Assembly: GCF_001422445.1 (NCBI RefSeq)
Contig: NZ_LMNA01000005.1
Coordinates: 1 to 64,000, forward strand
Reading direction: 5' to 3'
Source of the DNA: Pseudorhodoferax sp. Leaf274
Lineage (GTDB): Bacteria > Pseudomonadota > Gammaproteobacteria > Burkholderiales > Burkholderiaceae_C
DNA length: 64,000 bases
Each line of letters starts with the position of its first letter. The first letter of the stretch is position 1. The notes under the pieces are model-generated. The model ran no database searches. It saw nothing but the letters and a program-made list of their open reading frames with translations, and was not told the DNA's origin. Positions 16,865 to 45,395 of the stretch are shown here, one piece after another. Position numbers and translations under genes: made by a program.

Positions 16865-16884
16865 TAACCCGACGCGTCGGGTTA
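16865..16884. promoter_or_regulatory. motif A operator (perfect dyad)
   Basis: TAACCCGACGCGTCGGGTTA is a perfect 20-bp palindrome in the 90-base divergent region between crotonase 1 and the thioesterase. It is surrounded by AT-rich -10-like sequences (TTAATA on one side, TATATT on the other), as expected for an operator covering divergent promoters. It is the most symmetrical of six motif-A copies in the window. Confidence 0.78.
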
Positions 16885-16900
16885 TATTACAGGACATCGC

Positions 16901-17824
16901 ATGCTCCCAAACACCGACCCGACCATGAAGCCGCTGCCTCCCGTGGAATGGACCGACCTGCCGATGGACCGTTTGCTGGAACTGGAAACGCTGGCGCCGG
17001 GGCAATTCCGCAACATTCCCAACGACAGCAACCGCAACGGCCGCTCCTATGGCGGGCACAGCATCGCCATAGCCTTGCAGGCGGCCAGCCGCACCGTGCC
17101 GGCGGACCGCCCTGCCAGCATGCTGCAGTTCATGTTCCTGAAGGGCGTGCTGCCTGGCGTCCCGGTCGACTACCAGGTCACCAGCCTGCAGGACGGCAAG
17201 CGCTTCTCGTCGCGCCACATCCGCGCGCTGCAGAACGGCCAGGCCGTCCTCGACGCGCACGCCACGTTCGCGCGGCCCGCGCCGGCAGACCGGCTCGCGC
17301 ACGCCGACGCGCCACCGGCCGACCTGCCAGGCCCGCAGGCTTCGGTGCGTGTGACCGACCTGCCGCCTGCCAGCGCAGCCGCACTGGAGGGCCTGGGCAG
17401 CTACTCGTTCGCGGAGAAGTCCTGCATCGAGTTCCGGCTGCCCCGGCCCGAGCAGCTGGCAGCACCCGGCGGCTGCAACCGCTTCGAGTTCTGGATGCGC
17501 GCCAGGTCCCTGCCCGCGGACGATCTGCATGGCCAGTCCGTCGGCCTGGCGTATCTCTCAGACTGGTGGATCAACTTTCCGAGCCTGTCTGCCCACATTG
17601 CCGGCCTGCAGCGCAGCGGCGACGCCATCTACGTCGCCAGCCTGAACCACAGCATCTGGTTCCACCGCCACCACGATCCGCGCGAATGGATGCTGCTGGC
17701 CTGCGACAGCCCACGCGCCGTGGGCGGGCGCGGGCTGGCACTGGCGGCGGTGTACGACGCACAGGGCGGGCGGGTCGCCACCATCAGCCAGGAATGCCTG
17801 ATGGCCGCGCGGCTGGACGCCTGA
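16901..17824 (+). CDS. acyl-CoA thioesterase, TesB-like double hotdog
   Basis: A 307-residue protein with the two-hotdog layout of acyl-CoA thioesterase II: an N-terminal hotdog with the YGGHSIAIALQAASRTVP helix and the SSRHIRALQNGQAVLDAHATF strand region, and a C-terminal hotdog with ASLNHSIWFHR and a catalytic Asp-bearing block. It hydrolyses acyl-CoA, which could relieve CoA trapping during growth on slowly degraded acids. AGGA stands seven bases before the ATG at 16901. It is transcribed away from the motif-A dyad and converges with the acyl-CoA dehydrogenase gene, ending 9 bases before it. Confidence 0.85.
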   Translation: MLPNTDPTMKPLPPVEWTDLPMDRLLELETLAPGQFRNIPNDSNRNGRSYGGHSIAIALQAASRTVPADRPASMLQFMFLKGVLPGVPVDYQVTSLQDGKRFSSRHIRALQNGQAVLDAHATFARPAPADRLAHADAPPADLPGPQASVRVTDLPPASAAALEGLGSYSFAEKSCIEFRLPRPEQLAAPGGCNRFEFWMRARSLPADDLHGQSVGLAYLSDWWINFPSLSAHIAGLQRSGDAIYVASLNHSIWFHRHHDPREWMLLACDSPRAVGGRGLALAAVYDAQGGRVATISQECLMAARLDA

Positions 17825-17833
17825 GCCAGGCCC

Positions 17834-18970
17834 TCACAGGTCGCGTGCGATGAGTTCCTTCATGATCTCGTTCGTGCCGCCGTAGATGCGCTGTGCACGG
17901 GCGTCGACATAGGCCTTCGCGATCGGGTACTCGGCCATGAAGCCGTAGCCGCCGTGCAGCTGCACGCAGGCATCCACCACCTTGCCCTGCAGGTCGGTGG
18001 TCCAGTACTTGGCCATCGACGCCATCTGCGCGTCGAGTTCCCCGCGCATGAGCAGCTGCAGGCAACGGTCGACGAACACACGGCCGATCTGCAGCTCGGT
18101 CTTGAGTTCCGCGAGCGTGAAGCGGGTGGCCTGGAAGTCCGCCACGGCCTGGCCGAAGGCCTGGCGCTGGCGTACATATTCCAGCGTCCAGCCGTAGGCC
18201 GCCTCGGCCGCGGCAATCGCCGACACCGCGATCTGCAGCCGCTCCCAGGGCAGCTCGCGCATCAGGTAGGCAAAGCCCTGGTTCTCCTCGCCGAGCAGGT
18301 TCGCGACCGGCACGCGCACCTGGTCGAAGAACAGCTCGCCGGTGTCCTGGGACTTCAGGCCGATCTTCTTCAGCGGCGCCCCCTTGGTCAGACCTGGAGA
18401 GTCCGCATCGACCACCAGCAGGCTCACGCCCTTGGCCCCGGCACGCGGGTCGGTCTTGACGACGACCACCACCATGTCGCACACGGTGGCGTTGGAGATG
18501 AAGGTCTTGGACCCGGACACGACGTAATGCCCGCCGTCGCGCACCGCCGTCGTGCGCACCGCCTTCACGTCCGAGCCGCCGCCGGGCTCGGTCATCGCCA
18601 GGGCGCCCACGACCTCGCCCGCCACCATGCGGGGCAGATACGCCTGCTGGAGCGCCTCGCTGCCGTAGTGCATCAGGTAGTTGCTCACGATGTCCGAATG
18701 CATGGCGAACGACAGGCCGATGTTGCTGTAGCGCGCGGCCTCTTCCAGCAGCGCCGCGGTGTACAGCCGGTCGGCACCCGGCCCGCCATGGGTTTCCGGC
18801 ACCGTGGGGCACAGCAGGCCGGCGGCGCCGGCGCGGTGGAACAGTTCGCGCTCGAAGCCGCCGCGCGCTTCCCAGCGCTCCACATGGGGCGCCACTTCGC
18901 GCTCCAGGAAGCGCGCCACGGTGGCGCGGAACTGCGCATGCTCGGGGCCGAAGAGATCACGGGGGGACAT
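17834..18970 (-). CDS. acyl-CoA dehydrogenase, long-chain-like
   Basis: A 378-residue FAD-dependent acyl-CoA dehydrogenase. The FAD/substrate signature is AMTEPGGGSDV, and the C terminus reads IYGGTNEIMKELIARDL, the pattern of the long-chain (LCAD) group. There Gly replaces the usual C-terminal Glu and the base is supplied from the middle helix, here LPWERLQIA. So catalytic competence is retained. I chose the ATG at 18970 to begin MSPRDLFG; a GTG further upstream is weaker. It follows CoA ligase 1 by 63 bases on the same strand, forming an activation-oxidation pair under motif B. Confidence 0.88.
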   Translation of the reverse strand: MSPRDLFGPEHAQFRATVARFLEREVAPHVERWEARGGFERELFHRAGAAGLLCPTVPETHGGPGADRLYTAALLEEAARYSNIGLSFAMHSDIVSNYLMHYGSEALQQAYLPRMVAGEVVGALAMTEPGGGSDVKAVRTTAVRDGGHYVVSGSKTFISNATVCDMVVVVVKTDPRAGAKGVSLLVVDADSPGLTKGAPLKKIGLKSQDTGELFFDQVRVPVANLLGEENQGFAYLMRELPWERLQIAVSAIAAAEAAYGWTLEYVRQRQAFGQAVADFQATRFTLAELKTELQIGRVFVDRCLQLLMRGELDAQMASMAKYWTTDLQGKVVDACVQLHGGYGFMAEYPIAKAYVDARAQRIYGGTNEIMKELIARDL

Positions 18971-19033
18971 GGATGCTTTCACAAAGGACAAAGAGCGGCA
19001 GCGCACAGGCGCCAGGACCAGGGCAACGGCAGC

Positions 19034-24983: not shown

Positions 24984-26144
24984 TCACATGCGCTTGGCGA
25001 CTTCCTCCAGCATCACCTCGGTGGCGCCGCCGCCAATGGTCAGGATGCGCGCATCGCGCGCCATGCGCTCCACCGGTGTGCCGGTGATGTAGCCCGTGCC
25101 GCCGTGCAGCTGCAGGCAGGTGTGCACCACCTCCTGCAGCGTCTCCGCGCCGAAGGCCTTGAGCATGGACACCTCGCGCACCGTGTCCTTGCCCTCGTCG
25201 ATCATCTGGGCACACTGGTAGGTCAGCGCCCGCACGGCCGCTGCCTTGGCTGCGACCCAGGCGAGCTTGTGGCGCACCACGGGCTGCTCCCACAGCGACT
25301 TGCCGAAGGCCTGCCGGTTGCGCAGGTAGTCCACCGTCAGTTCGATGGCCTTGGAACAGGTGCCTGACGCCAGCCCGCCCACCACCAGCCGTTCGTTCTG
25401 GAACGTGCCCATGATGTAGTAGAAGCCCTTGCCCTCCTCGCCCAGCAGCGCATCGTGCGGCAGTTGCAGGTCGTCGAAGAACAGCTCGGCCGTGTCCGAC
25501 GAACGCCAGCCGTGCTTGTCGAATTTGCGCGCCACCTTCAGGCCGGGGTTGCCCTTGTCGACGATGAACATCGAGATGCCGCGGCTGCCCTTGGCCTCGG
25601 AATCTGTGCGCGCCGCCACGATGTAGATGTCGCCCAGCACGCCGTTGGTGATGAAGGTCTTGGAGCCGTTGATCACCCAGCCGTCGGCGGTCTTGACGGC
25701 GCGCGTCCTGATCGCGGCGACATCGGAGCCGGCGTGCGGCTCGGTCACGCAGATCACGCCCACATGGCTGCCCGCGCAGGCCAGGGGCAGGTACTTCTGC
25801 TTCTGCGCGGTCGAGCCGCGGTGCGCGATGTGGGAGATCGACATGTCGCTGTGCACGGTCAGCGCGGAGGCCACGCCGCCGTACGACGAACGGGCCAGCT
25901 CTTCGGCAAGCACGACCGAGGCCATGGCGCCCATGCCGCCGCCGCCGAACTCCACCGGATGCCGCATGCCAAGGAAGCCCAGTTCGCCCAGCGCGCGGAA
26001 CACCGAGCGCGGGATCTCACCGGCCGCCTCCCAGGCATCGCCCTGGGGCACGATCACCTCGTCGACGAAACGGCGCACCTGCTGGCGCACCATGCGCAGC
26101 TCCTCGCTCAGCACATCGGGCTCGTTGAATTCAAACGCGGTCAT
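24984..26144 (-). CDS. acyl-CoA dehydrogenase (IVD/LCAD-type)
   Basis: A 386-residue acyl-CoA dehydrogenase with CVTEPHAGSDVAAIRT as the FAD/substrate signature and C-terminal TCLQLHGGTGYITGTPVERMARDARI. The C-terminal base position reads IGGGATEV, without the Glu of short/medium-chain enzymes; the Glu in NERLVVGG of the middle helix fits the isovaleryl-CoA / long-chain type base. This supports a branched or bulky acyl-CoA substrate. It diverges from TetR regulator 1 over a motif-A operator (26203-26220) and is followed by binding protein 1. Confidence 0.88.
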   Translation of the reverse strand: MTAFEFNEPDVLSEELRMVRQQVRRFVDEVIVPQGDAWEAAGEIPRSVFRALGELGFLGMRHPVEFGGGGMGAMASVVLAEELARSSYGGVASALTVHSDMSISHIAHRGSTAQKQKYLPLACAGSHVGVICVTEPHAGSDVAAIRTRAVKTADGWVINGSKTFITNGVLGDIYIVAARTDSEAKGSRGISMFIVDKGNPGLKVARKFDKHGWRSSDTAELFFDDLQLPHDALLGEEGKGFYYIMGTFQNERLVVGGLASGTCSKAIELTVDYLRNRQAFGKSLWEQPVVRHKLAWVAAKAAAVRALTYQCAQMIDEGKDTVREVSMLKAFGAETLQEVVHTCLQLHGGTGYITGTPVERMARDARILTIGGGATEVMLEEVAKRM

Positions 26145-26202
26145 GTGGAATGTCCCAGGGGTTCTGCCATCGGCGTTGTTCTGACGGCGGCTCGCTATAA
26201 AT

Positions 26203-26220
26203 TAACCGCCACGTCGGTCT
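26203..26220. promoter_or_regulatory. motif A operator between acyl-CoA dehydrogenase and TetR 1
   Basis: TAACCGCCACGTCGGTCT, a motif-A copy with a well-conserved right half (CGTCGGTCT) and a diverged left half. It lies in the 139-base divergent region, flanked by AT-rich -10-like TATAAA. Position fits autoregulation of the TetR gene and control of the dehydrogenase. Confidence 0.65.
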
Positions 26221-26283
26221 ATTTTAGAAGTCGAGGCCGTCTGCGCGCAAGCGCGTTGCTAAACTCGCCCGACTGGAGAAGCC

Positions 26284-26877
26284 ATGCCAAGAGTGCGTTC
26301 GGACGACTACGAGACCAAGAGCCAAGCCATCATGGACTGCGCGGCCGCGCTGTTCGCCAAGGAGGGCTATCCGGCCGCCAAGATGCAGGATGTGGCCAAG
26401 GCCTGTGGCGCGACCAAGTCGATGCTGTACCACTACTTCCCGACCAAGGACGACCTGCTGTTCGCCATGCTCGAGGAGCATCTGCAGCGCATCATCCAGG
26501 GCCTGGACGAAGCGCTGGCGCAGCCCGGCACACCGCGCGAGCGCCTGCAGGCATTGGTCGAGGTCTACACCCAGAAGTCGGCACAGACGCGCAGGCGCCA
26601 TGTGGTGGCGATGAACGACGTGAAGTTCCTGCCCAAGGCCCAGCAGGCGCCGCTGCTGGCCCTGCAACGGCAGTTGACGGAGCGCGTCGCACAGCTGCTG
26701 CGCGCGCTCCATCCCGGCCTGCCCGACGAGGTCTACAAGCCCTACACCATGATGCTGCTGGGCATGCTGAACTGGACCGACCTCTGGTACAAGCCCTCGG
26801 GCAAGGTCAAGCCCCAGGAACTGTGCGACCGCATCACGCGGCTGTTCCTCAAGGGCCTGCTGGCCGAGAAGGCCTGA
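26284..26877 (+). CDS. TetR-family regulator 1
   Basis: A 197-residue TetR-type repressor. The N-terminal helix-turn-helix ends with the recognition segment ATKSMLYHYF (residues 43-52) and a ligand-binding helical domain follows. The C-terminal segment PYTMMLLGMLNWTDLWYKPSGKVKPQELCDRI has a close counterpart in TetR regulator 2 at 35756. GGAG precedes the ATG. The two proteins align without gaps over their first 52 residues and share nearly the same recognition helix, which suggests they read the same operator. Likely effector is an acyl-CoA of the pathway (inference). Confidence 0.88.
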   Translation: MPRVRSDDYETKSQAIMDCAAALFAKEGYPAAKMQDVAKACGATKSMLYHYFPTKDDLLFAMLEEHLQRIIQGLDEALAQPGTPRERLQALVEVYTQKSAQTRRRHVVAMNDVKFLPKAQQAPLLALQRQLTERVAQLLRALHPGLPDEVYKPYTMMLLGMLNWTDLWYKPSGKVKPQELCDRITRLFLKGLLAEKA

Positions 26878-28033: not shown

Positions 28034-28074
28034 GCGGGGGCTCCTGGTGGTGGAAACGGGGAAGGTGGCGGGAA

Positions 28075-29993: not shown

Positions 29994-30054
29994 TGAATCA
30001 CCTCCGTGCTGCGCACTGCGGTGCGCGCTTGCTTGGGGCAGCCCGGCGCGGCGC

Positions 30055-31917: not shown

Positions 31918-32691
<774 letters not shown>

Positions 32692-32695
<4 letters not shown>

Positions 32696-33522: not shown

Positions 33523-33536
33523 CACGGTGAATAATT

Positions 33537-33554
33537 AGTCCGACTCGTCGGTCT
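33537..33554. promoter_or_regulatory. motif A operator upstream of the ABC operon
   Basis: AGTCCGACTCGTCGGTCT, a well-conserved motif-A copy 15 bases upstream of livF. It abuts a TAATTA -10-like sequence on the minus strand, so a bound repressor would block RNA polymerase. The remaining bases to 33638 hold no gene, only a short inverted repeat (TAGGGG/CCCCTA, 33598-33612). Confidence 0.72.
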
Positions 33555-33638
33555 TTTTCTCGGGCGGATTATGAAAGCAGCGGGGCCCAAAATGTTTTAG
33601 GGGTTGCCCCTAGGTTGTGCCAAAAACCGCGGGCGGGC

Positions 33639-35678: not shown

Positions 35679-35695
35679 CTGCATTCCTTTCATTC

Positions 35696-35713
35696 ACCGA
35701 CGCGTGGGTCGGT
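35696..35713. promoter_or_regulatory. motif A region between ferredoxin reductase and TetR 2
   Basis: ACCGACGCGTGGGTCGGT. This copy has ACCGAC and GTCGGT half-sites separated by six bases rather than two; ACCGACGCGTGGGT within it also forms a normally spaced dyad. A -10-like TATACT (35715-35720) follows on the plus strand. Spacing makes it the least canonical of the six copies. Confidence 0.6.
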
Positions 35714-35755
35714 CTATACTTTTGGCGATCCGCTGCACGCATCCCACCGCACCAC

Positions 35756-36358
35756 ATGACCAGAGAACGCGCGGGCGACTACGACGCCAAGAAGCAGCTC
35801 ATCCTCGACCGCGCAGCGGACCTGTTCGCCAGCAAGGGGTTCGATGGCACGACCATGGTGGAAGTGGCCACGGCCTGCGGCGCGTCCAAATCGCACCTCT
35901 ACCACTACTTCCCCAGCAAGGAAGTGCTGCTGTTCGCCATCGTCAGCGAACACATTGCGCAGCAGGCCGCCGAACTCGGCGAGATCGTCGCGCGTCCGCT
36001 GCCGGCGCTCGACCGCTTCGAGCTGTTCGTCTCCGCCTTCGTGGCGCGCTCCGCGGCGTCGCGCAGCGAGCACCTGGTCCTCATGGGCTGCCTGAATTTC
36101 CTGCCCGATGCCGAGCGCCAACAGGTGCGCACGCTCGAAGCGCAACTGATCGGCCTGATGATCGGCCTGCTCGAAGAAATCAATCCCGGGCTCATGGCCC
36201 CCGAGACGGTGAAGACGCCCTACGCCATGCTGCTGTTCGGCATGATCATCTGGACCTTCACCTGGTACCAGCAGACCGGCGCCATCAAGCCCCAGGAACT
36301 GGCGGCGCGCATCTCGCAACTGTTCATCCAGGGCTTTCGCGGCAGCCGGTTTCCGTGA
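35756..36358 (+). CDS. TetR-family regulator 2
   Basis: A 200-residue TetR-type repressor with the recognition segment ASKSHLYHYF at residues 43-52, in the same register as ATKSMLYHYF of TetR 1. The C-terminal part (TPYAMLLFGMIIWTFTWYQQTGAIKPQELAARI) also parallels TetR 1. No strong ribosome site precedes the ATG. It is divergent from the ferredoxin reductase gene over motif A and probably autoregulated. The 109 bases after its stop contain no recognisable gene. Having two such paralogues in one region points to layered control by related ligands. Confidence 0.87.
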   Translation: MTRERAGDYDAKKQLILDRAADLFASKGFDGTTMVEVATACGASKSHLYHYFPSKEVLLFAIVSEHIAQQAAELGEIVARPLPALDRFELFVSAFVARSAASRSEHLVLMGCLNFLPDAERQQVRTLEAQLIGLMIGLLEEINPGLMAPETVKTPYAMLLFGMIIWTFTWYQQTGAIKPQELAARISQLFIQGFRGSRFP

Positions 36359-36467: not shown

Positions 36468-37796
36468 TCAGGCGGCCTGCCCCACACCCAGCACGCCGAG
36501 CGCCATGCGCGCTGCCGCCTCGCCGGTGTCCACGCACGCCTGGGTGCCGCCACCGCCGTAGTCCTTGACCGCGTCGCCCACGTTCCAGAGGTTGGCCAGC
36601 GGCGTTTCCTGCGGCATGTCGTAGCCGGCGCAGGAGCGCTGGGCGGGCCATTCGTCGCGCATCACGCGGATGGAGAGGATCCTGGCACCGGCGAAGCCAG
36701 GGAACTCGTTGCGCAGGTCCTGCAGGCCCAGTTCGGTTTCGGCCTTCTCGTCGAAGTCGCCCAACGCGGGCTTGGGCACCACGTAGGCCACGTAGAGATG
36801 CCAGCCCGGGGGCGCCATTTCAGGGCACATGGCGCTGAGCTCGCCCAGGTTGCACAGGCGTTCGGTGTTGGCAAAGGTGATGAGACCGGGTTGGTCGATC
36901 AGGCGCTGCCGGGTGGCGAAGTTGACCACGATGTTGGCCGCCGGGCGCAGCACACGCCGGGCCTTGGCCACGTAGGCCTCGCCCATGGCTTGCTCGCCGA
37001 CCAGCCGGATCGTGGCGCTGGGCCCGACGTTGCTGATGACCACGCGGGCACCGACGCGCTGCGTCACGCCATCGCGCACCACGTCCACGCCGGTGGCGCG
37101 GCCATCGGCCACGTGGATCTTGCGCACCGGTGCGTCGAGCCAGATCTCGCCGCCCTTGGCGCGGATGCCGGCGCCCAGGTCGTTCCACAGCCCGATCGTG
37201 CCGCGCGGGCAAAAGCCGAAGCGCTTGAAGGCGCCCTTGAACGCGAAGTAGGTAAGGAAGGCGCGCGCCGGCAACTCATTGGCGTTGGCGGCCCAGATGG
37301 CGGCGCAGAAGTTGCGGAACAACCGGTGCACGGTCTCGTTCTTGGTGAACTTTTTGAGCCAGTCCTCGGTGGACAGCGTTTCTTCCGGCAACTCGGCGTT
37401 GCCTTTGCGCACGTCGCCGAAGCTGGCGCCGATCTTGGCGGCGGCCTTGGTCAGGCCGCCGAGGATCAGGCTCCAGCCACCGCCCTTGCTGGGGTCGATG
37501 ATCTTGCCGTCGATGCGGAACACGGTGGCCGGCTGGGGTTCGCGCACATCCAGCGGCACGCCCAGCAGGTCGAACGTCTGCTCGAAGCTGCTGCCGCGCT
37601 CGATGGCGATGGCGCCACGGTTGACGATGAAGCCGTCGATCTCTTCGCTGGACGCGCGCCCGCCCAGGCGGTCCTGCGATTCCACCAGCAACACCTTGCG
37701 GCCGGCCGCCACCAAGTGGGCTGCGGCGCTCATGCCGCCTGCACCGGCGCCGATCACGATGGCGTCGTAGTGGGCTGTCTGCTGGGCTGGGGTCAT
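36468..37796 (-). CDS. FAD-dependent oxidoreductase, phytoene desaturase-like
   Basis: A 442-residue flavoprotein of the CrtI / carotenoid isomerase-like amine-oxidase superfamily. The dinucleotide-binding start is AIVIGAGAGGMSAAAHLVAAGRKVLLVESQDRLGGRA, the middle holds PRGTIGLWNDLGAGIRAKGGEIW, and the C terminus WNVGDAVKDYGGGGTQACVDTGEAAA closes the FAD site. Related enzymes introduce double bonds into isoprenoid or ring systems. It lies 104 bases after the SCP-x-type thiolase on the same strand and is probably the last gene of the Rieske operon. A dehydrogenation or aromatisation role is possible but unproven. Confidence 0.8.
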   Translation of the reverse strand: MTPAQQTAHYDAIVIGAGAGGMSAAAHLVAAGRKVLLVESQDRLGGRASSEEIDGFIVNRGAIAIERGSSFEQTFDLLGVPLDVREPQPATVFRIDGKIIDPSKGGGWSLILGGLTKAAAKIGASFGDVRKGNAELPEETLSTEDWLKKFTKNETVHRLFRNFCAAIWAANANELPARAFLTYFAFKGAFKRFGFCPRGTIGLWNDLGAGIRAKGGEIWLDAPVRKIHVADGRATGVDVVRDGVTQRVGARVVISNVGPSATIRLVGEQAMGEAYVAKARRVLRPAANIVVNFATRQRLIDQPGLITFANTERLCNLGELSAMCPEMAPPGWHLYVAYVVPKPALGDFDEKAETELGLQDLRNEFPGFAGARILSIRVMRDEWPAQRSCAGYDMPQETPLANLWNVGDAVKDYGGGGTQACVDTGEAAARMALGVLGVGQAA

Positions 37797-37900
37797 GTCT
37801 TCTCCTGTGTAGGAATGTGTCGAGAGGGTCGGAGCCAAAGGAGCCCGGCCGCCACGCGCGGCGTGGGCCGTTCCAGCAGCACCACGGAATCGGCCAGGGC

Positions 37901-39103
37901 TCAAGCCCCTTCCTGGCCGACGATGGAGATCGAACAGATGTTCTGCGACGGTTGCCCGCCCAGGTTGTGCACCAGACCGGTCTTGGGGCTGGCCAGCTGG
38001 CGCGGCCCAGCGCGGCCCTGCAGCTGCAGGTAGATCTCGTAGAGCATGCGGATGCCGCTGGCCCCCACAGGATGGCCGAAGCACTTGAGGCCGCCATCGA
38101 TCTGGCAGGGCACGCGGCCTGCCGCGTCGAAGTCGCCATCCAGCACGTCGTGGACCGCCCGGCCCTCATCCGACAGGCCCAGGTCTTCCATGGTCACGAG
38201 CTCGGTGATCGAAAAGCAGTCGTGCACCGCGGTCATGCTGATGCCCTCGCGCGGCCTGGCGATGCCGGCCTCCGCGTAGGCACGCCGGGCGGCAATGCGC
38301 GTGGTGTGGAAGTAGCTGCCGTCCCAGCCGTTGGACTGCATCTCCCAACCGTTGGAGACCGCGACCTGCAGCGCTTTGAAGGTCACCAGGTCCTTCTTGC
38401 CCAGCGCCCGCGCGATCTCGGGCGTGGTGACAATCGCGGCGGCGGCGCCATCCGACACGCCGCAGCAGTCGAACAGGCCCAGCGGTGCGGCGATCGTCGG
38501 CGCCTTCATGCACTGCTCCTCGGTGATCGCCTTCTGCAGATGGGCCTTGGGGTTCTTCGCACCGTTGGCATGGCTCTTGATCGAGACGTGCGAGATGGCG
38601 CGCTTGAGCAGGGCCGCGTCGATGCCGTGCTTGGCGCGGTAGGCGCTGGCCAGCTGCGCGAAGTTGGCGGGCGCCACGGCATTGGGGTACCACTGCGGAA
38701 TGTAGGTGCCGACAGTGGCCACGGGCAGGCCGCCGTAGCCGGTGTCCTTGAGCTTCTCCACGCCCAGGGCAATGGCGATGTCGCAGGCGCCTGCGGCCAC
38801 GGCGTAGACGGCGCCGCGGATGGCCTCGGAGCCGCCCGCGCAGAAGTTCTCCACGCGCGTCACGCCGATGTTGGGCAGGCGCAGCGCGATGCCCATGGGC
38901 GTGCCGCCGCGCCCGGTCCCCACGTCGTCGATGTGGGTGGAGAACCAGGCCGCGCCGAGTTGGTCGGGCGCGATGCCGGCGTCGGCCATGGCCTCGTTGT
39001 AGGCCTCCAGCATGAGGTCCTCGGGACTGGCGTCCCAGCGTTCGCCGAACTTGCTGCAACCCATCCCGAGGATGGCGACCTTGTCCTTGATGCCTTGTGC
39101 CAT
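37901..39103 (-). CDS. SCP-x-type thiolase
   Basis: A 400-residue thiolase-superfamily protein of the sterol carrier protein x group. It keeps the nucleophilic Cys88 (VENFCAGGSEAIRGA) and the His of KCFGHPVGASGIRM, while the last motif reads HNLGGQPSQN instead of the CxG of classical thiolases, as usual for SCP-x. Such proteins cleave branched 3-ketoacyl-CoA or, with a DUF35 partner, catalyse retro-aldol steps on side chains. It follows the HMG-CoA-synthase-like/OB-fold gene by 9 bases, recalling archaeal thiolase-HMGS-DUF35 complexes. Substrate unknown. Confidence 0.88.
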   Translation of the reverse strand: MAQGIKDKVAILGMGCSKFGERWDASPEDLMLEAYNEAMADAGIAPDQLGAAWFSTHIDDVGTGRGGTPMGIALRLPNIGVTRVENFCAGGSEAIRGAVYAVAAGACDIAIALGVEKLKDTGYGGLPVATVGTYIPQWYPNAVAPANFAQLASAYRAKHGIDAALLKRAISHVSIKSHANGAKNPKAHLQKAITEEQCMKAPTIAAPLGLFDCCGVSDGAAAAIVTTPEIARALGKKDLVTFKALQVAVSNGWEMQSNGWDGSYFHTTRIAARRAYAEAGIARPREGISMTAVHDCFSITELVTMEDLGLSDEGRAVHDVLDGDFDAAGRVPCQIDGGLKCFGHPVGASGIRMLYEIYLQLQGRAGPRQLASPKTGLVHNLGGQPSQNICSISIVGQEGA

Positions 39104-39112
39104 GTTCCGTCC

Positions 39113-40573
39113 TCAGCCTTGCGCGCCACGCACCGGCGTGGCTTTCCAGAAGTACCGCGTGAAGCCGCGGCGCTCGTCGACGTCCTTGATGCGGAACACC
39201 ATCTCCATGGCGCTGCCCGCATCGACCTCGCCCACGTCCAGGTCGGTGAAGTCCATCAGGATGCGGCCGCCGCCCTCGAAGTCGATCTGGCCATAGTGGT
39301 GCGGCGGCGCGGGGTGCCAGGACAGGTATTCGGCCGACCAGCTCAGGATGCGCGCGGGCCGGTCGGCCAGCGGATGGGGCTTCTGCGTGTCCTGCAGCGG
39401 CTGGGCGTCGTAGCTCAGGCGCGAGGGCGGGAAGTGCACGCTGCCCGTCACCTCGCAGCGCCCTGCCACCAGGGCCTGCAGCGCCTGGTGGTGGCGCCAG
39501 GCGGTGGACAGCGCGGTCTTCTTGTCCTGCTCGCCGCGCATGCCGCGCTCCAGCGCCAGCTGGCCCTTGAACGACAGGAAGCGCGTGTACTGGCGGTCCT
39601 CGACGCCGCGCGCGATCCAGGCGCTGACACCGCGCGCAGGCTGAAACGTGCGGACGGCGTCGGTGGCGCGGAACACCAGGGCCTGGGCGCCGCTGCCGAA
39701 CTGCGCCAGCACGATGCACTGGCCCGGTTGCACGCCCTCCAGGACCTGGGCCAGCAGCAGCAGGCCGTGCGGCACGCCGGTCTCGCCCACGGTGTCGGTC
39801 AGGGCATCCACCACGGCCTCAGGGCGCATGCCGCAGGCCTTGGCCAGTTGCTGGTCCATCCTGGCGAAGCTGCTCGGGAAGATGAAGTGGTCGACCTGGG
39901 CCGGCTGCACGCCGGCATTCGCCAGCGCCGCCTTGACCGCGCGCGGCACCAGCTTGGCGATGCCTTCGTCGCGCACCCACCGTTCTTCCCAGTGGTAGTC
40001 GACGTCTTCGCCGGTGGCACGGAAGCGGTCGACGAAGTCGGCGGTCACGGTGCCGGCGCCGAGGTACTCGGCCAGCACGTTCTCGCGGCCCACCACCAAG
40101 GCCGCGGCCGCGTCGCCGTAGTCCAGCTCCTGTGCGCTGCCGGCGCGCGTGCGGCGGTTGTCTGCCGCCAGCACCAGCGTGTCGCCACCGCCGGCCTGCA
40201 CGCGGGCCACGGCCTGGGTCAGGGCCGACAGGCCGGCGCGCTGCGTGCCGCCCAGGTCGACGGCGTCGATGTCCTCCGCCAGTGCCAGCGCACCGGCCGC
40301 GATGCCGGCGTTCAGGCGTTCTGCGAATGGCAGGGTGTCCGAGGCGAACAGCAGGCCGCGCACGGCCCTGCGGTTGCGCGCCTCGGCAGGACCGAGGCAG
40401 TCGCGGGCGGCGGCCACGGCCATGGTGATGCTGTCCTCGTCCCAATTGGCGAAGGCCCGCGTGCCCTTGCGCCCGGCGAACTGCGGCGCGTACCAGGCGT
40501 TGGCCTGCGCAGCCGCCTGGCGCGACAGGCGCAGCCGCGGCACGTAGCCGCCGTAGGCGGTGATTCCGATCAT
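39113..40573 (-). CDS. HMG-CoA synthase-like protein fused to OB-fold (DUF35-like)
   Basis: A 486-residue fusion. Residues 1 to ~340 follow the HMG-CoA synthase / thiolase fold (MIGITAYGGYVPRLRLSR, GLLFASDTLPFAER, HFIFPSSFARMDQQLAKACG, LAQFGSGAQALVF). Residues ~360-486 form a DUF35-type OB-fold ending in GGRILMDFTDLD...GSAMEMVFRIKDVDERRGFTRYFWKATP. At the position of the synthase nucleophile (ACYGGT) it has VDLGGT, so Asp106 replaces Cys. The OB part also lacks the zinc-ribbon cysteines. I infer a non-condensing scaffold or altered-chemistry partner of the adjacent thiolase. Its ATG overlaps the esterase stop. Confidence 0.8.
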   Translation of the reverse strand: MIGITAYGGYVPRLRLSRQAAAQANAWYAPQFAGRKGTRAFANWDEDSITMAVAAARDCLGPAEARNRRAVRGLLFASDTLPFAERLNAGIAAGALALAEDIDAVDLGGTQRAGLSALTQAVARVQAGGGDTLVLAADNRRTRAGSAQELDYGDAAAALVVGRENVLAEYLGAGTVTADFVDRFRATGEDVDYHWEERWVRDEGIAKLVPRAVKAALANAGVQPAQVDHFIFPSSFARMDQQLAKACGMRPEAVVDALTDTVGETGVPHGLLLLAQVLEGVQPGQCIVLAQFGSGAQALVFRATDAVRTFQPARGVSAWIARGVEDRQYTRFLSFKGQLALERGMRGEQDKKTALSTAWRHHQALQALVAGRCEVTGSVHFPPSRLSYDAQPLQDTQKPHPLADRPARILSWSAEYLSWHPAPPHHYGQIDFEGGGRILMDFTDLDVGEVDAGSAMEMVFRIKDVDERRGFTRYFWKATPVRGAQG

Positions 40574-41508
40574 GGTCGACTTTCTCCTGGGTGATGGCGC
40601 TGCAGCTGCGACGCGAGGAAGCGGCCGCCCTGGCCGAGCGCATCGCGCGCCTGCGGCAGCGCGTGCAGAAATTGCTGGAACACATGGACCATGCCGGGCC
40701 AGACCTGCGCGGTGGCCTGGCCACCGGCGGCGTTGACGCGCTGGGCGAAGCGCTCCGTGTCGCTCAGCACCGTCTCGCGGTCGCCGACCTGCAGCAGCAA
40801 GGGCGGCAGGGCACGCAGTTGCGCCGGGTCGGCGTACAGCGGGGAGGCCAGTGGATCGTCCGCCTGGCCGGTGCTGCCCAGGTAGTTGCGGGCCATGGCC
40901 TGGACCATCGGGCGCTGGTGGATCGGGTCGGCCGCCGACCGCGAGACATAGCTCTCCCCGGTGGCCGCCAGATCGGTCCAGGCGGACATCGTGAATGCGG
41001 CCGCGGGCAAGGGCCGTTGCTGCGCCTGCAAGGCCAGCAGCGTGCTCAGTGCCAGGCCACCACCGGCAGAGTCGCCGGCCAAGGCCAGGTCCTGCGCCGC
41101 GAAGCCCTGCGCCCGCAGCGCCTGCAGCACCGCCAGCGCATCGTCCAGCGCGGCCGGGTAACGGTGCTCAGGCGCCAGGCGGTAGTCCACGCCCAGCACG
41201 CGCACCCCCGCAGCCGCCGACAGCGCAAGCATCAGCTCACGGTGCGACTGCAGCGAGCCGACCTGGAAGCCGCCACCGTGGAAGTACACGATGGCCTGGT
41301 CGTGCGCCACGCCAGGCGCTGTGATCCAGGCGCAGGGCACGCCGCCGAGCTGCAATGGCGCGAACGTGCCCTCGCCCGCTGCGCCGAACAACTGGTCCCA
41401 ATCGGCACGCATCTGCGCCACCGGGGTATCGCGCCGCCAGCGGCCGTACACCGCTTTGACGCGCGCGATGACGGCCTCGACGGCCGGCGTGTCGACCGGC
41501 TGTGTCAT
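40570..41508 (-). CDS. alpha/beta hydrolase, hormone-sensitive-lipase family
   Basis: A 312-residue esterase of the HSL (bacterial family IV) group, with HGGGF as the oxyanion hole, GDSAGGGLA carrying the nucleophilic Ser, the acid in GDRETVLSD and the His in GMVHVFQQF. It hydrolyses short acyl esters or lactones in the cytoplasm. Both ends overlap neighbours by ATGA (SDR upstream, HMGS-like downstream), so it is an integral operon member. A role in opening a lactone or an ester made by the upstream oxygenation steps is plausible, not shown. Confidence 0.88.
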   Translation of the reverse strand: MTQPVDTPAVEAVIARVKAVYGRWRRDTPVAQMRADWDQLFGAAGEGTFAPLQLGGVPCAWITAPGVAHDQAIVYFHGGGFQVGSLQSHRELMLALSAAAGVRVLGVDYRLAPEHRYPAALDDALAVLQALRAQGFAAQDLALAGDSAGGGLALSTLLALQAQQRPLPAAAFTMSAWTDLAATGESYVSRSAADPIHQRPMVQAMARNYLGSTGQADDPLASPLYADPAQLRALPPLLLQVGDRETVLSDTERFAQRVNAAGGQATAQVWPGMVHVFQQFLHALPQARDALGQGGRFLASQLQRHHPGESRP

Positions 41509-42245
41509 GCGCCGCACCCCATGCCGCCGGAGACGCCCAGCACTTCGCCCGTCACATAGGCCGCGCCGTCCGAAGCCAGGAAGGCCACGGCGGCGGCCAC
41601 CTCCTCGCCCGTGCCGAGCCGGCCCGTCAGCGTGGCATCGGTCATGGCACCGAGCAGCCGCTCCCCGCCCGCATGCACGGCCTGGCGCAGCAACGGCGTG
41701 TCGATCGGGCCCGGCGCCACGACATTGGCCGTGATGCCCTTGCGGCCGTTCTCCCGCGCGATCGAGCGGGTGAAGGCCATCACCCCGCCCTTGGCCGCTG
41801 CGTACACGGAGCCGCCGCGCGAGCCGAGCCGGCCCGCCTCCGATGCCACGTTCACGATGCGCCCGTAGCCCTGCGCCTGCATGGCGGGCAGCACGGCATG
41901 CGTGGTGTTCAGCACCGCTTCGAGGTTCACCGCCAGCAGCCGGCGCCAGTCCGCCGGCCCGGTCTTGGTGAAGAAGGCATGCTGGTCCACACCGGCACAG
42001 TTCACGAGCACGTCGAACGGGCCGAGCCGCGCCACCTCGGCCTGCACACGCGCGAAGTCGCAGACGTCCAGCACCACGGCGGTGGCGCCACAGGACTCCG
42101 CCACGCGCTGCGCCGCTTCGGCCTGCAGGTCGGCACAGACCACGTCCAGTCCATCGGCCGACAGGCGTCGCACGATGGCAGCGCCGATGCCGCTGGCGCC
42201 ACCGGTCACCAGTGCGCGCCGGCGCACGTTGGAAGCCGCCGCCAT
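41505..42245 (-). CDS. SDR-family oxidoreductase
   Basis: A 246-residue classical short-chain dehydrogenase: GGASGIGAA cofactor loop, VNCAGVDQ, catalytic Ser in VNVASEAGR, YAAAKGGVMAF with the Tyr/Lys pair, and C-terminal GVSGGMGCG. Directly after the Rieske and crotonase genes, it could oxidise a cis-dihydrodiol or a 3-hydroxyacyl-CoA; both reactions are known for this family. The start adjoins the crotonase stop without a gap and the end overlaps the esterase by four bases. Confidence 0.88.
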   Translation of the reverse strand: MAAASNVRRRALVTGGASGIGAAIVRRLSADGLDVVCADLQAEAAQRVAESCGATAVVLDVCDFARVQAEVARLGPFDVLVNCAGVDQHAFFTKTGPADWRRLLAVNLEAVLNTTHAVLPAMQAQGYGRIVNVASEAGRLGSRGGSVYAAAKGGVMAFTRSIARENGRKGITANVVAPGPIDTPLLRQAVHAGGERLLGAMTDATLTGRLGTGEEVAAAVAFLASDGAAYVTGEVLGVSGGMGCGA

Positions 42246-43076
42246 TCAATGCCCCTTGAAGACCGGCGCGCGTTTCTCGATGACGGCCGCCAGGCCTTCC
42301 AGCGCGTCGTCCATACCGCACAGCATGGCCTGCGCGTGGTTCTCTTCCGGCATGGCCGACTCGACCGTCTGCCCAATGCCGTTCCAGAGCAGGCGCTTGG
42401 TGTTCGCCAGGGCCTTGGGCGCGCCGGCCGCAAGCTGGCGTGCCAGCGCCCAGGCCTCGGCCTGCAGTTGCCCGTCGGCGACGACGCGCGTGATGAGGCC
42501 GATCTCCTTCGCCTCGCGGGCCGTCAACACCGGGTTGAGCATCAGGATTTCGGTCGCGCGCCGCAGGCCCACGAGTTGCGTCAGCGTGACCGACACACCG
42601 GCGTCCGGCACCATCGCCACGCGGGTCGCGCCGGCCAGGAAGCGCGCCGATTCCGCCGCCACCACGAAGTCGGACGCGCACACCAGGCCCATGCCGCCAC
42701 CGCCGGCCGCATAGCCCTGCACCACGGTGACGACCGGCGGGTTCAGCCGCATCAATGCGCCGGTGGCGAGTTGCAGCAGCGCGGTCGCCACGCGGATGTA
42801 GTCCGGCAAGCCCTTGCCCTGGGCCAGGAACGTGTGCACGTCGCCACCGGCGCAGAAGTTCTTGCCCTCGCCGCTCAGCAGCAGCGCGCGCACCCGGCCG
42901 TCGCCGTGCACGCGGAGCACGGCCGCGTGCAGGGCGCGCAGCATCTCCACGTTCAGCCCGTTGGCCGAGCCGGGTTGGTTCAGATGCAGGTGGGCCACGC
43001 CATCGGCGTGCAACGCCAGCCGCACGAAACCGTCGTCCACCAGCGTGTCGGCCGGCGATGCGAGGGATGTGTCCAT
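42246..43076 (-). CDS. enoyl-CoA hydratase/isomerase (crotonase 3)
   Basis: A 276-residue crotonase-fold protein with GKNFCAGGDVHTFLAQG and VVQGYAAGGGGMGLVCASDFVVAA as oxyanion segments; the region of the second catalytic Glu reads TRVAMVPDAGVSVTL with Asp-type substitution, more usual in isomerases of the 2-(1,2-epoxyphenyl)acetyl-CoA group. Its position right after the Rieske beta subunit (23 bases) suggests it acts on a ring-oxygenated CoA thioester or its cleavage product. Substrate is inferred from context. Confidence 0.86.
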   Translation of the reverse strand: MDTSLASPADTLVDDGFVRLALHADGVAHLHLNQPGSANGLNVEMLRALHAAVLRVHGDGRVRALLLSGEGKNFCAGGDVHTFLAQGKGLPDYIRVATALLQLATGALMRLNPPVVTVVQGYAAGGGGMGLVCASDFVVAAESARFLAGATRVAMVPDAGVSVTLTQLVGLRRATEILMLNPVLTAREAKEIGLITRVVADGQLQAEAWALARQLAAGAPKALANTKRLLWNGIGQTVESAMPEENHAQAMLCGMDDALEGLAAVIEKRAPVFKGH

Positions 43077-43099
43077 GTGTCGTTCTCCAGTGGGGTGTC

Positions 43100-43591
43100 T
43101 CAGACGAGGAAGGCCATCGAATACAGCGCGTCGGCGTTGTTGACGATGCTGACCTTCTTGCGGGCCATCAGGAAGCTGTCGCCGTTGCGGCGCAGCCGGT
43201 AGTCCAGGCGGGCGGCCCACAGCACGTCGCCGCGGGTCTGGTTCTCGAAGATCAGCACGTTGCAGCCGACGTTGAGTTCCGCGCCCTCGTCCTGCAGCAC
43301 CTCGACGTTGGAGACCAGGCGGCGCAGGCGCGACTGCGGCGTCTGCGCAAAGCGCTTGCCGGTGTGGAACTGGCGGATGCGCAACGCGATGCGCGAGCGG
43401 TTGTCGTAGATGATGGACATCACCAGCTCGGGGTCGCCGTCGTTGCCGTTGGCGGGCACCCAGTAGACGCCGTCGTCGGCCCACAGGGCTTCCCAGGCGT
43501 CGTACTGGTGCTCGTCCTGCAGCCGTGCTTCGCGGTAGATGAACTGCGTCACGTCTTCCAGCGTGGCGCGTTGCTCCGGCGTCATCGGCAT
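43100..43591 (-). CDS. ring-hydroxylating dioxygenase beta subunit
   Basis: A 163-residue small subunit of the NTF2-like fold: VTQFIYREARLQDEHQYDAWEALWADDGVYWVP, then SRIALRIRQFHTGKRFAQTPQSRLRRLVSNVEV and the closing DYRLRRNGDSFLMARKKVSIVNNADALYS. It forms the alpha3beta3 core with the large subunit and is structural. Its ATG shares one base with the large-subunit stop (TGATG), so the two are coupled. Length is typical of the family. Confidence 0.92.
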   Translation of the reverse strand: MPMTPEQRATLEDVTQFIYREARLQDEHQYDAWEALWADDGVYWVPANGNDGDPELVMSIIYDNRSRIALRIRQFHTGKRFAQTPQSRLRRLVSNVEVLQDEGAELNVGCNVLIFENQTRGDVLWAARLDYRLRRNGDSFLMARKKVSIVNNADALYSMAFLV

Positions 43592-44880
43592 CACGCGGCC
43601 TCCATGGTCTGGCGGTAGTGGCGCCAGATGCCGCGCGTGGGCACCTCGTCGGTGTTGTCGCCGATCAGGAAACCGTTCTCGTCGCGCCGCTCGCGGTGCT
43701 TGCCGCGGCCCAGGAACAGCCATTCCGGGTTGCGCATCTGCACGCCCATCTGGGTGCGCTCGTACATCTCGGCGTCGTCGGCCAGCAGGAACCCGGCCGG
43801 GCCGACCGAGCCCATGGTCTGCTGGCGCATGCGGCGGTTCAGGTCCGGGGCGCCCTTGAACTGCAGGGCCGTCACATGCTGCACGCTCTCGTTCACCGAC
43901 AGCGGCTGGATCACGAAGATCTGGATCTCCGCGATGAACAGGTTCGGGTAGATCATGACGTGCGGCGTCCCGTCGACCATGATCCTGCGGGCCTTCTCCT
44001 CGCCGTAGGCCGCGCGCATCTTGGCGGCGTAGTCGGGCAGCCGGTCCTCGGTGGTGCCGAACCAGGACATCGGCACATCGCGCTTGCGGAACTCGGGCCG
44101 CAGGTCGTTCTCGGTGTGGCCGTTGCCAAGGTCGCGCGACACGGCGGTGGACTCGGCGCTGTACAGCGTGCCGATGCCGCTTTGCGCCACCTCGAAGATG
44201 GAGGCGTGCACGAAGGACGGGTGGTAACCGTCGGTCTCGTTCTCGACCAGGAACTTCCAGTTGGCCTTGACCTTGTGCTTGAGGAAGCCTGCGGTGATCT
44301 CGATCTCGCCCTCGGGCGAGGTTTCGCACAGCGCGTCGATGGACTGCATCGCGGCGCCCAGGTGCTCCTGCAGGCCAGGCCCTTCGGCCGCCATGGAGCC
44401 GAACACGAAGCCGCGGTAGCTGGCCACGCGCGCAACCTTGCCCATGCCGAGCTGGCTGCGGTCGACACCGTCATAGCCCGATGGGAAGGGCCAACCCTTG
44501 AGCGCGCCATCGTTGCCGAAGGTCCAGCCGTGGTAAGGGCAGGTGAAAGAGCGCGCGTTGCCATGGTCCTTCATGCACACGCGGTTGCCGCGGTGCGGGC
44601 AGCGGTTGTGCAGCAGATGGATCTGGCCGGTGCGGTCGCGCGTCATGATCACCGGCTCGGGGCCGATGGACTTCATGACGAAGTCGTTGGCTTGGGGCAC
44701 CTCGCTCTCGTGGCCCACATAAACCCAGGTCTTGAACCAGATCTTCTCCAGTTCGGCCTGGTAGATGGCGGGGTCGGTGTAGAGCGAGCCATGCACCTGC
44801 TGCTCGCGGACGAGCGCGTCCCAGCGTGGCTGTGCGACCGGTGCGCTGGCAATCGGAATCAGGGGGTGGCAGTTGTCCAC
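43591..44880 (-). CDS. ring-hydroxylating dioxygenase alpha subunit (Rieske)
   Basis: A 429-residue Rieske oxygenase large subunit. The [2Fe-2S] ligands are Cys94 and His96 (CPHRG) and Cys114 and His117 (CPYHGW). The mononuclear iron site is ENETDGYHPSFVH with bridging Asp217 and His220/His225. It inserts oxygen into a ring or C-H bond using electrons from ferredoxin and reductase. The start resembles benzoate/salicylate-type enzymes (TDPAIYQAELEKIWFKTWVYVGHESEVP), but the substrate cannot be named. It is the first gene of an eight-gene operon driven by a promoter that carries a motif-A operator. Confidence 0.93.
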   Translation of the reverse strand: MDNCHPLIPIASAPVAQPRWDALVREQQVHGSLYTDPAIYQAELEKIWFKTWVYVGHESEVPQANDFVMKSIGPEPVIMTRDRTGQIHLLHNRCPHRGNRVCMKDHGNARSFTCPYHGWTFGNDGALKGWPFPSGYDGVDRSQLGMGKVARVASYRGFVFGSMAAEGPGLQEHLGAAMQSIDALCETSPEGEIEITAGFLKHKVKANWKFLVENETDGYHPSFVHASIFEVAQSGIGTLYSAESTAVSRDLGNGHTENDLRPEFRKRDVPMSWFGTTEDRLPDYAAKMRAAYGEEKARRIMVDGTPHVMIYPNLFIAEIQIFVIQPLSVNESVQHVTALQFKGAPDLNRRMRQQTMGSVGPAGFLLADDAEMYERTQMGVQMRNPEWLFLGRGKHRERRDENGFLIGDNTDEVPTRGIWRHYRQTMEAA

Positions 44881-44934
44881 GTCAGGGTTCCTCCGTACGG
44901 GATGGATGTGTTGTTCGGCGGCCGAGTTGGCGCG

Positions 44935-44964
44935 ATAATAGTCCGACGAGACGGTCTATGTCAA
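44935..44964 (-). promoter_or_regulatory. sigma70-type promoter of the Rieske operon
   Basis: On the minus strand TTGACA (44959-44964) and TATTAT (44935-44940) are separated by 18 bases, a consensus -35 with a good -10. The motif-A dyad occupies exactly the spacer, a classic repressor placement. On the plus strand TTGTTC (44911-44916) and GATAAT (44934-44939), 17 bases apart, could drive the divergent ferredoxin gene. Confidence 0.75.
44940..44957. promoter_or_regulatory. motif A operator in the Rieske/ferredoxin region
   Basis: AGTCCGACGAGACGGTCT, with TA outside each end completing a 20-bp imperfect dyad. It lies between -35 and -10 of the Rieske promoter and just downstream of the plus-strand -10-like GATAAT. 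One bound repressor would shut off both the oxygenase operon and the ferredoxin. Confidence 0.72.
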
Positions 44965-45002
44965 ACCGCCGTCGCGGAGTTTTTTCGAAGGACTTTCATC
45001 CC

Positions 45003-45323
45003 ATGCCGACCGTTGTTTTCACCGATCCCCAGGGCACCGAACACCGCGTGGAAGCGCCATCGGGGCGCAGCCTCATGAAGATCGCCGTCGACCACGGCGT
45101 GCCCGGCATCCTGGGCGACTGCGGTGGCGCATGCAGCTGCGCGACCTGCCACGGCTATGTCGACCCGGCCTTCGCCGAGCGGCTGCCGGCGCGCACGGAG
45201 ACCGAGGAATTCATGCTGGAAGGCGTGCCGGATCTGCGCGCGACCAGCCGGCTGTGCTGCCAGCTGCGCATGGCGCCGGAACTCGACGGCATACGCATCC
45301 AGCTGCCCGACGAACAGGTCTGA
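45003..45323 (+). CDS. [2Fe-2S] ferredoxin, adrenodoxin/putidaredoxin type
   Basis: A 106-residue ferredoxin. The cluster cysteines are Cys40, Cys46 and Cys49 in GDCGGACSCATCHGYV and Cys86 in SRLCCQL, the spacing of adrenodoxin-type proteins. It shuttles single electrons from a FAD reductase to an oxygenase. The divergent Rieske genes are the obvious acceptor and the reductase at 34425 the donor, all three under motif A. The ATG at 45003 is preceded by AAGGA. Confidence 0.92.
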   Translation: MPTVVFTDPQGTEHRVEAPSGRSLMKIAVDHGVPGILGDCGGACSCATCHGYVDPAFAERLPARTETEEFMLEGVPDLRATSRLCCQLRMAPELDGIRIQLPDEQV

Positions 45324-45377
45324 GCAAGCACCACAGCCCGCCATGCAGGCCGGCACAAAGGGTCAACCCCAATAAAT

Positions 45378-45395
45378 AAGCCGTCTGGTCGGTCT
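45378..45395. promoter_or_regulatory. motif A operator upstream of CoA ligase 2
   Basis: AAGCCGTCTGGTCGGTCT, with TA outside each end. It overlaps a plus-strand -10-like TATTAT (45395-45400), about 60 bases before CoA ligase 2. The left half is diverged, the right half fully conserved. Confidence 0.66.

What the first reader, a model, noticed from the sequence alone, without database searches (positions are those of the whole stretch)
16865..45395. Six copies of one TetR-type dyad define a catabolic regulon (motif A)
The core CCGAC-NN-GTCGG with flanking TA recurs at 16865-16884, 26203-26220, 33537-33554, 35696-35713, 44940-44957 and 45378-45395, always in front of or between catabolic genes and never inside genes that I noticed. 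The targets are the thioesterase/crotonase 1, an acyl-CoA dehydrogenase with TetR 1, the ABC operon, the ferredoxin reductase with TetR 2, the Rieske operon with ferredoxin, and CoA ligase 2. The two TetR proteins align without gaps in the DNA-binding domain and have near-identical recognition helices (ATKSMLYHYF, ASKSHLYHYF), so both may bind the same sites. The set assembles transporter, ligase, oxygenase and its complete electron chain under one signal.
Basis: partly seen in the sequence, partly recalled or inferred. Interest (0 to 1): 0.85.

Follow-up and report, generated by a model that had tools for sequence, protein, structure and literature searches.

The report
Shared repressor switch for catabolic genes
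Five strong copies and one degenerate copy of a short palindromic DNA switch sit in front of genes that appear to take up and break down an unidentified carboxylic acid, and comparison with other bacteria indicates that two related TetR-type repressors read this switch, much as the known repressor PaaR does for phenylacetate.

Summary
The sites are real. Five of six fit a 20-bp palindrome, TAGACCGACNNGTCGGTCTA, with A+T-rich arms; site 4 is degenerate (6-bp centre). Genome scans find only the five strong sites in 6.7 Mb. Upstream of related tetR genes the palindrome occurs in 34 of 42 TetR1-clade and 26 of 26 TetR2-clade genes, 1 of 32 other relatives (a PaaR) and 1 of 690 stretches inside genes. 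In relatives, sites recur at the same places: ACAD1/tetR1, ABC operon, ferredoxin reductase/tetR2, Rieske oxygenase, CoA ligase. Operators often fill the spacer between -35 and -10, clearest at the Rieske promoter (TTGACA-18-TATTAT), which points to repression by blocking RNA polymerase. The core equals the published PaaR operator ACCGACCGGTCGGT, but no PaaR was found in this genome, and TetR1 and TetR2 form clades of their own. In relatives with both regulators the sites differ in flavour at one position, so full interchangeability is not shown. Binding, inducer and substrate are untested. A new member of a known kind.

The parts
16861..16888 (.). Operator 1 between crotonase (ECH1, starts 16810, minus) and acyl-CoA thioesterase (16901, plus); TTAATA-16-TATATT promoter-like pair around it
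   Evidence: score 34.5; promoter-like pair
26198..26225 (.). Operator 2 between acyl-CoA dehydrogenase ACAD1 (minus) and tetR1 (plus)
   Evidence: score 32.8; same place in relatives
33532..33559 (.). Operator 3 before the ABC transporter/CoA ligase genes (livF first, minus)
   Evidence: score 32.2; same place in relatives
35689..35716 (.). Operator 4, degenerate: 6-bp centre instead of 2; between ferredoxin reductase (minus) and tetR2 (plus)
   Evidence: score 15.8; canonical before tetR2 in relatives
44935..44962 (.). Operator 5 between Rieske oxygenase alpha (minus) and ferredoxin (plus); fills the 18-bp spacer of TTGACA-18-TATTAT on the minus strand
   Evidence: score 35.5; promoter 11 of 12; same place on a Variovorax plasmid
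44958..44985 (.). Weak second copy 23 bp from operator 5
   Evidence: score 13.1
45373..45400 (.). Operator 6 before CoA ligase 2 (plus)
   Evidence: score 34.1
26284..26877 (+). TetR1, PaaR-like repressor
   Evidence: PF00440 + PF17932; clade
35756..36358 (+). TetR2, PaaR-like repressor, 43% identical to TetR1
   Evidence: PF00440 + PF17932
16901..17824 (+). acyl-CoA thioesterase
16004..16810 (-). crotonase ECH1
   Evidence: PF00378; likely start
24984..26144 (-). acyl-CoA dehydrogenase ACAD1
26879..33525 (-). branched-chain-type ABC transporter genes (two ATPases, two permeases, binding protein) with an AMP-forming CoA ligase among them
33639..34391 (-). flavodoxin-like NAD(P)H/FMN reductase
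34425..35693 (-). FAD ferredoxin reductase
36468..43585 (-). rest of the Rieske run: FAD oxidoreductase, thiolase, HMG-CoA-synthase-like protein, alpha/beta hydrolase, SDR, crotonase, Rieske beta subunit (about 43100-43585)
43591..44880 (-). Rieske oxygenase alpha subunit
45003..45323 (+). [2Fe-2S] ferredoxin
   Evidence: PF00111; likely start
45459..47015 (+). CoA ligase 2

Best explanation
The sites are operators of two paralogous TetR-family repressors of the PaaR type, TetR1 and TetR2. A dimer binds the palindrome TAGACCGACNNGTCGGTCTA. Because the palindrome fills the space between, or lies against, the -35 and -10 elements, it blocks RNA polymerase at promoters for the transporter and ligase genes, the Rieske run and its ferredoxin, CoA ligase 2, acyl-CoA dehydrogenase, thioesterase and crotonase, and at the tetR1 promoter (weakly, if at all, at tetR2 and the ferredoxin reductase in this genome). 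A CoA thioester made from the imported acid most likely releases the repressors, so arrival of substrate opens the whole cluster. Shown by comparison: the motif, its placement, its confinement to the cluster and its tie to the two TetR clades. Inferred: physical binding, repression, the CoA-thioester inducer and the operon limits.
For: A matrix from other bacteria ranks the six sites first. Genome scans give only the five strong sites. 131 sites in 55 relative loci (0.99 Mb): 0 of 131 lie in a best, non-overlapping match of a window protein. Palindrome upstream of 34 of 42 TetR1-clade and 26 of 26 TetR2-clade genes against 1 of 32 other tetR relatives and 1 of 690 genic stretches (tree). Of the 15 genomes reached I scanned 12: 12 of 12 have model hits, and in 8 of 12 all hits lie on one contig within about 1 to 50 kb. 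A Variovorax plasmid found by its Rieske protein, not by a TetR, has a 34.8 site between ferredoxin and Rieske gene. 44 of 129 sites have a sigma70-like pair whose spacer is centred on the operator, against 1.8 +/- 1.6 with shuffled flanks and 5.3 +/- 2.2 with only the nearest 12 bases shuffled. PaaR operator ACCGACCGGTCGGT between -10 and -35 in B. cenocepacia (PMC2770484, passages); binding by gel shift and release by 'compound II', which I take to be phenylacetyl-CoA (PMC9493321, passages).
Against: No binding, expression or inducer data. 8 of 42 TetR1-clade genes lack a 14-of-18 match within 300 bp (L061, L081, L087, L094, L095, L104, L107, L113); L087 and L095 have matrix hits of 26.6 and 19.1 there, and L104, L107, L113 sit on a long branch. 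Site 4 is degenerate. The matrix sites were first picked with a consensus that I wrote from the window's sites, so the matrix is not fully independent; applies that consensus alike to all groups. With every tblastn match counted, 3 of 131 sites lie under weak (33-36%) dehydrogenase matches, and 13 of 131 lie in ORFs of a crude caller that% of the DNA coding. 16 of 123 sites scoring 25 or more have no matched gene start within 350 bp. 85 of 129 sites show no centred promoter-like pair at the cut-off used, and only 3 of the window's 6 do. Relatives were found with [TS]KS[MH]LYHY as one of two patterns, so helix likeness is partly by selection. 4 of 59 other relatives' genomes have one weak model hit each, E 0.0084-0.043. 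The tree's bootstrap had not settled and some long branches meet.
Confidence: 0.87

Rival explanations
1. Division of labour: the two repressors prefer different sub-flavours of the site. TetR1 mainly controls its own/ACAD1 promoter, TetR2 the ABC and reductase/tetR2 promoters, with partial overlap.
For: In 16 relative loci with a tetR1 site and an ABC and/or tetR2 site, G at position 8 occurs in 10 of 16 tetR1-promoter sites and 0 of 29 ABC or tetR2 sites, T in 3 of 16 against 20 of 29; 0 of 5000 within-locus permutations reach this. The recognition helix reads KSM in 43 of 43 TetR1-clade and KSH in 27 of 27 TetR2-clade rows.
Against: Orthologous sites share variants by descent, so the permutation overstates significance, and the helix letters are partly selected by the search pattern. 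The window's own tetR1 site has C there. Genomes in which only one clade was found keep sites at the Rieske gene.
Confidence: 0.35
2. Only one of the two TetRs binds; the other is a passenger or reads something else.
For: In one search some genomes show only a TetR1-type (G060, G061, G068, G069, G070) or only a TetR2-type strong match (G062, G063), so one may suffice; one further weak match of G060 was not placed on the tree.
Against: Each clade has the palindrome in front of its own gene: 34 of 42 and 26 of 26.
Confidence: 0.1
3. The sites belong to PaaR or another regulator outside the cluster, the TetRs being neighbours by chance.
For: The core is the same as the PaaR operator; sites near PaaR-clade genes score 15.1-20.9 with the matrix in four of five loci scanned, so the two codes are close.
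Against: In this genome the only two matches to TetR1 at E up to 1e-20 are TetR1 and TetR2, and PaaA_PaaC gives one match exactly at the cut-off, 28.5 bits. G001, which has a PaaR beside paa genes, has 0 model hits.
Confidence: 0.04
4. Chance palindromes or terminator-like hairpins in A+T-rich gaps.
For: The bare core is common in this 68% G+C window.
Against: Scores of 32-35 against a best simulated 16.5; the same gene borders in relatives.
Confidence: 0.01

Closest known systems
PaaR (TetR) regulon of phenylacetate degradation, Burkholderia cenocepacia
   Same: Operator core ACCGAC-NN-GTCGGT; operator between -35 and -10; several promoters of one CoA-thioester pathway; same two domains as the PaaR of G001
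   Different: TetR1 and TetR2 are 37% and 35% identical to the G001 PaaR and form separate clades; bases before ACC are TAG instead of TTG or TCA in the PaaR-clade sites seen; targets are a Rieske and ABC/ligase cluster, not paa genes; two regulators instead of one
KstR2 and other TetR repressors of catabolic clusters
   Same: TetR fold and catabolic targets (recalled); KstR2 chains appear in the structure search
   Different: Weak similarity (E about 1e-10); the KstR2 motif is different (recalled, no call)
Ibuprofen ipfABDEF-type pathways
   Same: CoA ligase, two-subunit Rieske oxygenase and SCP2-type thiolase (recalled)
   Different: No ipf sequence was compared here; the substrate of the present cluster is unknown

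Membership tests
TetR family, PaaR-like group (TetR_N + TetR_C_24) | both domains over the curated cut-off | tested here: met
   TetR1 58.2 and 83.8 bits, TetR2 63.3 and 60.6 bits
PaaR-like operator | ACCGAC-NN-GTCGGT palindrome at the tetR and target promoters | tested here: met
   five strong sites, each with at most small departures; published PaaR sequence; not met by site 4
PaaR proper | gene lies with paa genes and falls in the PaaR clade | tested here: not met
   separate clades, support 99/91 and 99/95; no paa genes among the neighbours identified; one PaaA_PaaC match at the cut-off in the genome
TetR repressor | operator overlaps the core promoter | tested here: met
   44 of 129 sites centred in a promoter-like spacer, 3 of the window's 6 among them; best case
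CoA-thioester-responsive repressor | release from DNA by a pathway CoA ester | not testable with these tools
   reported for PaaR (passages); inferred here
Single regulon for both TetRs | both proteins bind the same sites | tested here: inconclusive
   one-clade genomes keep Rieske sites; sub-flavours differ

The most novel reading that the evidence does not exclude
Two paralogous repressors share one private operator code descended from the PaaR code. The TetR1 half of the system has moved with the catabolic genes between Beta- and Alphaproteobacteria and Myxococcota; TetR2 was added in betaproteobacteria. Outer bases set the code apart from PaaR, and one recognition-helix residue (Met or His) together with one operator position (G or T at position 8) tilts each promoter towards one repressor, so that two different CoA esters, early and late in the pathway, are read by graded overlap on the same set of sites.
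Probability: 0.25. Interest if true: 0.6.

Novelty: new member of a known kind. Interest (0 to 1): 0.42.

Why it matters
It fixes a precise operator and a bounded regulon for a recurring but, as far as I could find, uncharacterised Rieske/CoA-thioester cluster, so the inducer, and through it the substrate, can be sought with simple binding and reporter tests. It also gives a natural case of three related repressors (PaaR, TetR1, TetR2) whose helices and operators diverged from one core, useful for learning how TetR paralogues avoid or keep crosstalk.

Tried and rejected
The short pattern CCGACNNGTCGGTCTA with 2 mismatches is uninformative genome-wide: 92 forward and 81 reverse matches against 152 and 156 for the reversed control, 100 places listed. 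Chance and terminators were rejected. Substrate: literature searches (listings only, empty) showed no paper that I recognised as describing this cluster; it stays open. The motif in print: (ACCGACCGGTCGGT) found only the two PaaR papers; (four strings) gave 77 papers, 15 listed and seen as titles and abstract starts, none about this operator, the other 62 not seen.

Papers: PMC2770484 and PMC9493321 were seen as passages; all others as search listings only. The KstR2 motif, ipf gene functions and general TetR lore are recalled.

Rows dropped: of 61 loci, L114-L119 (weak partial matches) were left out throughout; L082 has no upstream DNA and was left out of upstream counts; L112 falls in the other clade and is not among the 32. 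One search used sites scoring 25 or more with full flanks (123 in relatives) plus the window's six. One search used 12 of the 15 genomes, plus G001. L085's genome is not held. Model scans scored 125-150 candidates per genome.

Errors of mine: in the tblastn the queries ECH1 and FADox (4 and 7 stops, read as X) and Fd were out of frame, so their labels there are unreliable. One search repeats the check in frame, with the results given in the Against line.
Full report
Observation. The exact core CCGACNNGTCGG occurs only at sites 1 and 3. Sites 2, 5 and 6, and site 4 in one register, have one mismatch; ten other one-mismatch cores fall in ORFs. The informative unit is a 20-bp palindrome, TAGACCGACNNGTCGGTCTA, with A+T arms. 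Site 4 is ACCGAC-GCGTGG-GTCGGT: right halves, wrong spacing.

Significance. I took the DNA upstream of TetR1/TetR2 relatives in named genomes and scored the palindrome. In 43 of 54 loci a match of at least 14 of 18 lies within 220 bp; random 220-bp pieces of the same loci reach that in 45 of 2064. A 28-bp matrix from those 43 sites (27 bits) ranks the six reader sites first in the window: 35.5, 34.5, 34.1, 32.8 and 32.2 for five, and 15.8 for site 4; 60 simulated windows gave at most 16.5. The consensus used to pick the 43 sites was written from the window, so the matrix is not fully independent. In the whole genome (6.7 Mb, 30 contigs) a flanked pattern hits the five strong sites plus one hairpin-like stretch on another contig, reversed control 0. 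A sequence model built from 54 relatives' sites gives the five sites as its ten best hits and then E of 0.94.

Conservation. In 55 relative loci (0.99 Mb) there are 131 sites scoring 18 or more. None of the 131 lies in a best, non-overlapping match of a window protein. A repeat with three mis-framed queries put right and every match counted gives 3 of 131, all under weak 33-36% dehydrogenase matches that run past the ACAD1 start; a crude ORF caller puts 13 of 131 in ORFs while calling 79% of the DNA coding. The order ACAD1, site, tetR1, ABC genes, site, FdR, site, tetR2 appears in 13 of the 55 loci (L070 with one more gene between). In Rhodopseudomonas and Cupriavidus lacunae, where only a TetR1-type regulator was found, sites stand before the Rieske gene, and in Rhodopseudomonas also before ACAD1, a crotonase and CoA ligase 2. 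Two genomes where only a TetR2-type was found (Macromonas and a lichen betaproteobacterium) also have Rieske sites. I scanned 12 of the 15 genomes with the model: 12 of 12 have hits, all on one contig within about 1 to 50 kb in 8, and on two or three contigs in the other four. Of 59 other relatives, four have one weak hit each. A Variovorax plasmid, reached through its Rieske protein, carries a 34.8 site between ferredoxin and Rieske genes; a Sulfitobacter plasmid has only weaker sites (16.6-19.4) and a Rhodococcus plasmid none at 14 or more.

Which protein. TetR1 and TetR2 are 43% identical and carry TetR_N and TetR_C_24. A tree of 103 proteins puts them in two clades (43 rows, 99/91; 27 rows, 99/95), apart from a 29-row clade that holds PaaR (99/92, bootstrap not settled, some long branches). 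The palindrome lies within 300 bp upstream of 34 of 42 TetR1-clade genes and 26 of 26 TetR2-clade genes, against 1 of 32 other relatives and 1 of 690 stretches inside genes. The one exception is the tetR of G001, a same-genus genome, which sits beside PaaC, PaaD and PaaE-like proteins, a ligase and a crotonase, i.e. PaaR, with ACCGACCGGTCGGT 126 bp upstream. That is the operator published for B. cenocepacia PaaR (PMC2770484, passages). Sites near PaaR-clade genes score 15.1-20.9 with the matrix in four of five loci scanned, so the codes are close but below the 27-42 typical here.

Mechanism. At site 5 the minus strand reads TTGACA-18-TATTAT, 11 of 12, with the operator filling the spacer, directed at the Rieske genes. 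Of 129 sites, 44 have such a pair centred on the operator; shuffled flanks give 1.8 +/- 1.6 and shuffling only the nearest 12 bases gives 5.3 +/- 2.2. In the window this holds for sites 1, 4 and 5. A second group of pairs lies about 25 bp upstream, with the operator over the start region. The A+T arms of the motif are therefore partly promoter elements. This is the anatomy of a repressor that excludes RNA polymerase, as described for PaaR. Release by a CoA thioester is inferred from PaaR (PMC9493321, passages) and from the CoA ligases among the targets.

Shared or divided control. In 16 relative loci, G at position 8 occurs in 10 of 16 tetR1-promoter sites and 0 of 29 ABC or tetR2 sites; T occurs in 3 of 16 and 20 of 29. 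The recognition helix reads KSM in 43 of 43 TetR1-clade rows and KSH in 27 of 27 TetR2-clade rows. This fits graded preferences, but shared descent of orthologous sites is a plain alternative, and the loci were found with a helix pattern, so helix conservation is partly by selection.

Extent. By strand and spacing the five strong operators could govern crotonase 1 and the genes behind it, the thioesterase, ACAD1 and the minus-strand genes down to 17834, tetR1, the ABC/ligase genes, the Rieske run 36468-44880, ferredoxin and CoA ligase 2. Operon limits are not shown. The run of Rieske oxygenase, crotonase, SDR, hydrolase, HMG-synthase-like protein and thiolase recurs on the Variovorax plasmid, and parts of it on Sulfitobacter and Rhodococcus plasmids. 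The substrate is unknown.

Verdict. A real, well-bounded regulon of a known kind: PaaR-like TetR repressors.

Noticed in passing
window 35689-35716: Operator 4 has a centre four bases longer than the sites before tetR2 in relatives; autoregulation of tetR2 may be weakened here.
   Followed up: partly
window 44935-44985; L060, L063, L065, L068 near 9913-9966: A weaker second operator lies exactly 23 bp from the strong one at the window's site 5 and in four relatives' tetR1 promoters, suggesting paired dimers; one further case (L091) has 25 bp.
   Followed up: partly
window 20766-23663: A 965-aa LuxR/MalT-type regulator sits inside the cluster and matches occur in several relatives; its role is unknown.
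   Followed up: no
window 3827-10098: A separate set with an intradiol catechol dioxygenase, a muconate-cycloisomerase-like enzyme, and GntR- and LysR-type regulators lies left of the cluster and has no strong operator.
   Followed up: no
window 37901-40573: Thiolase next to an HMG-CoA-synthase-like protein, a pair that recurs with this Rieske oxygenase on a Variovorax plasmid (L120).
   Followed up: partly
window 48757-52826: A 1159-aa protein with pyruvate:ferredoxin-oxidoreductase-type and DUF6537 domains beside an AsnC-type regulator, just beyond the regulon.
   Followed up: no
L074: A metagenome bin labelled Bordetella parapertussis carries an ACAD1-tetR1-ABC set; the label looks doubtful to me.
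   Followed up: no
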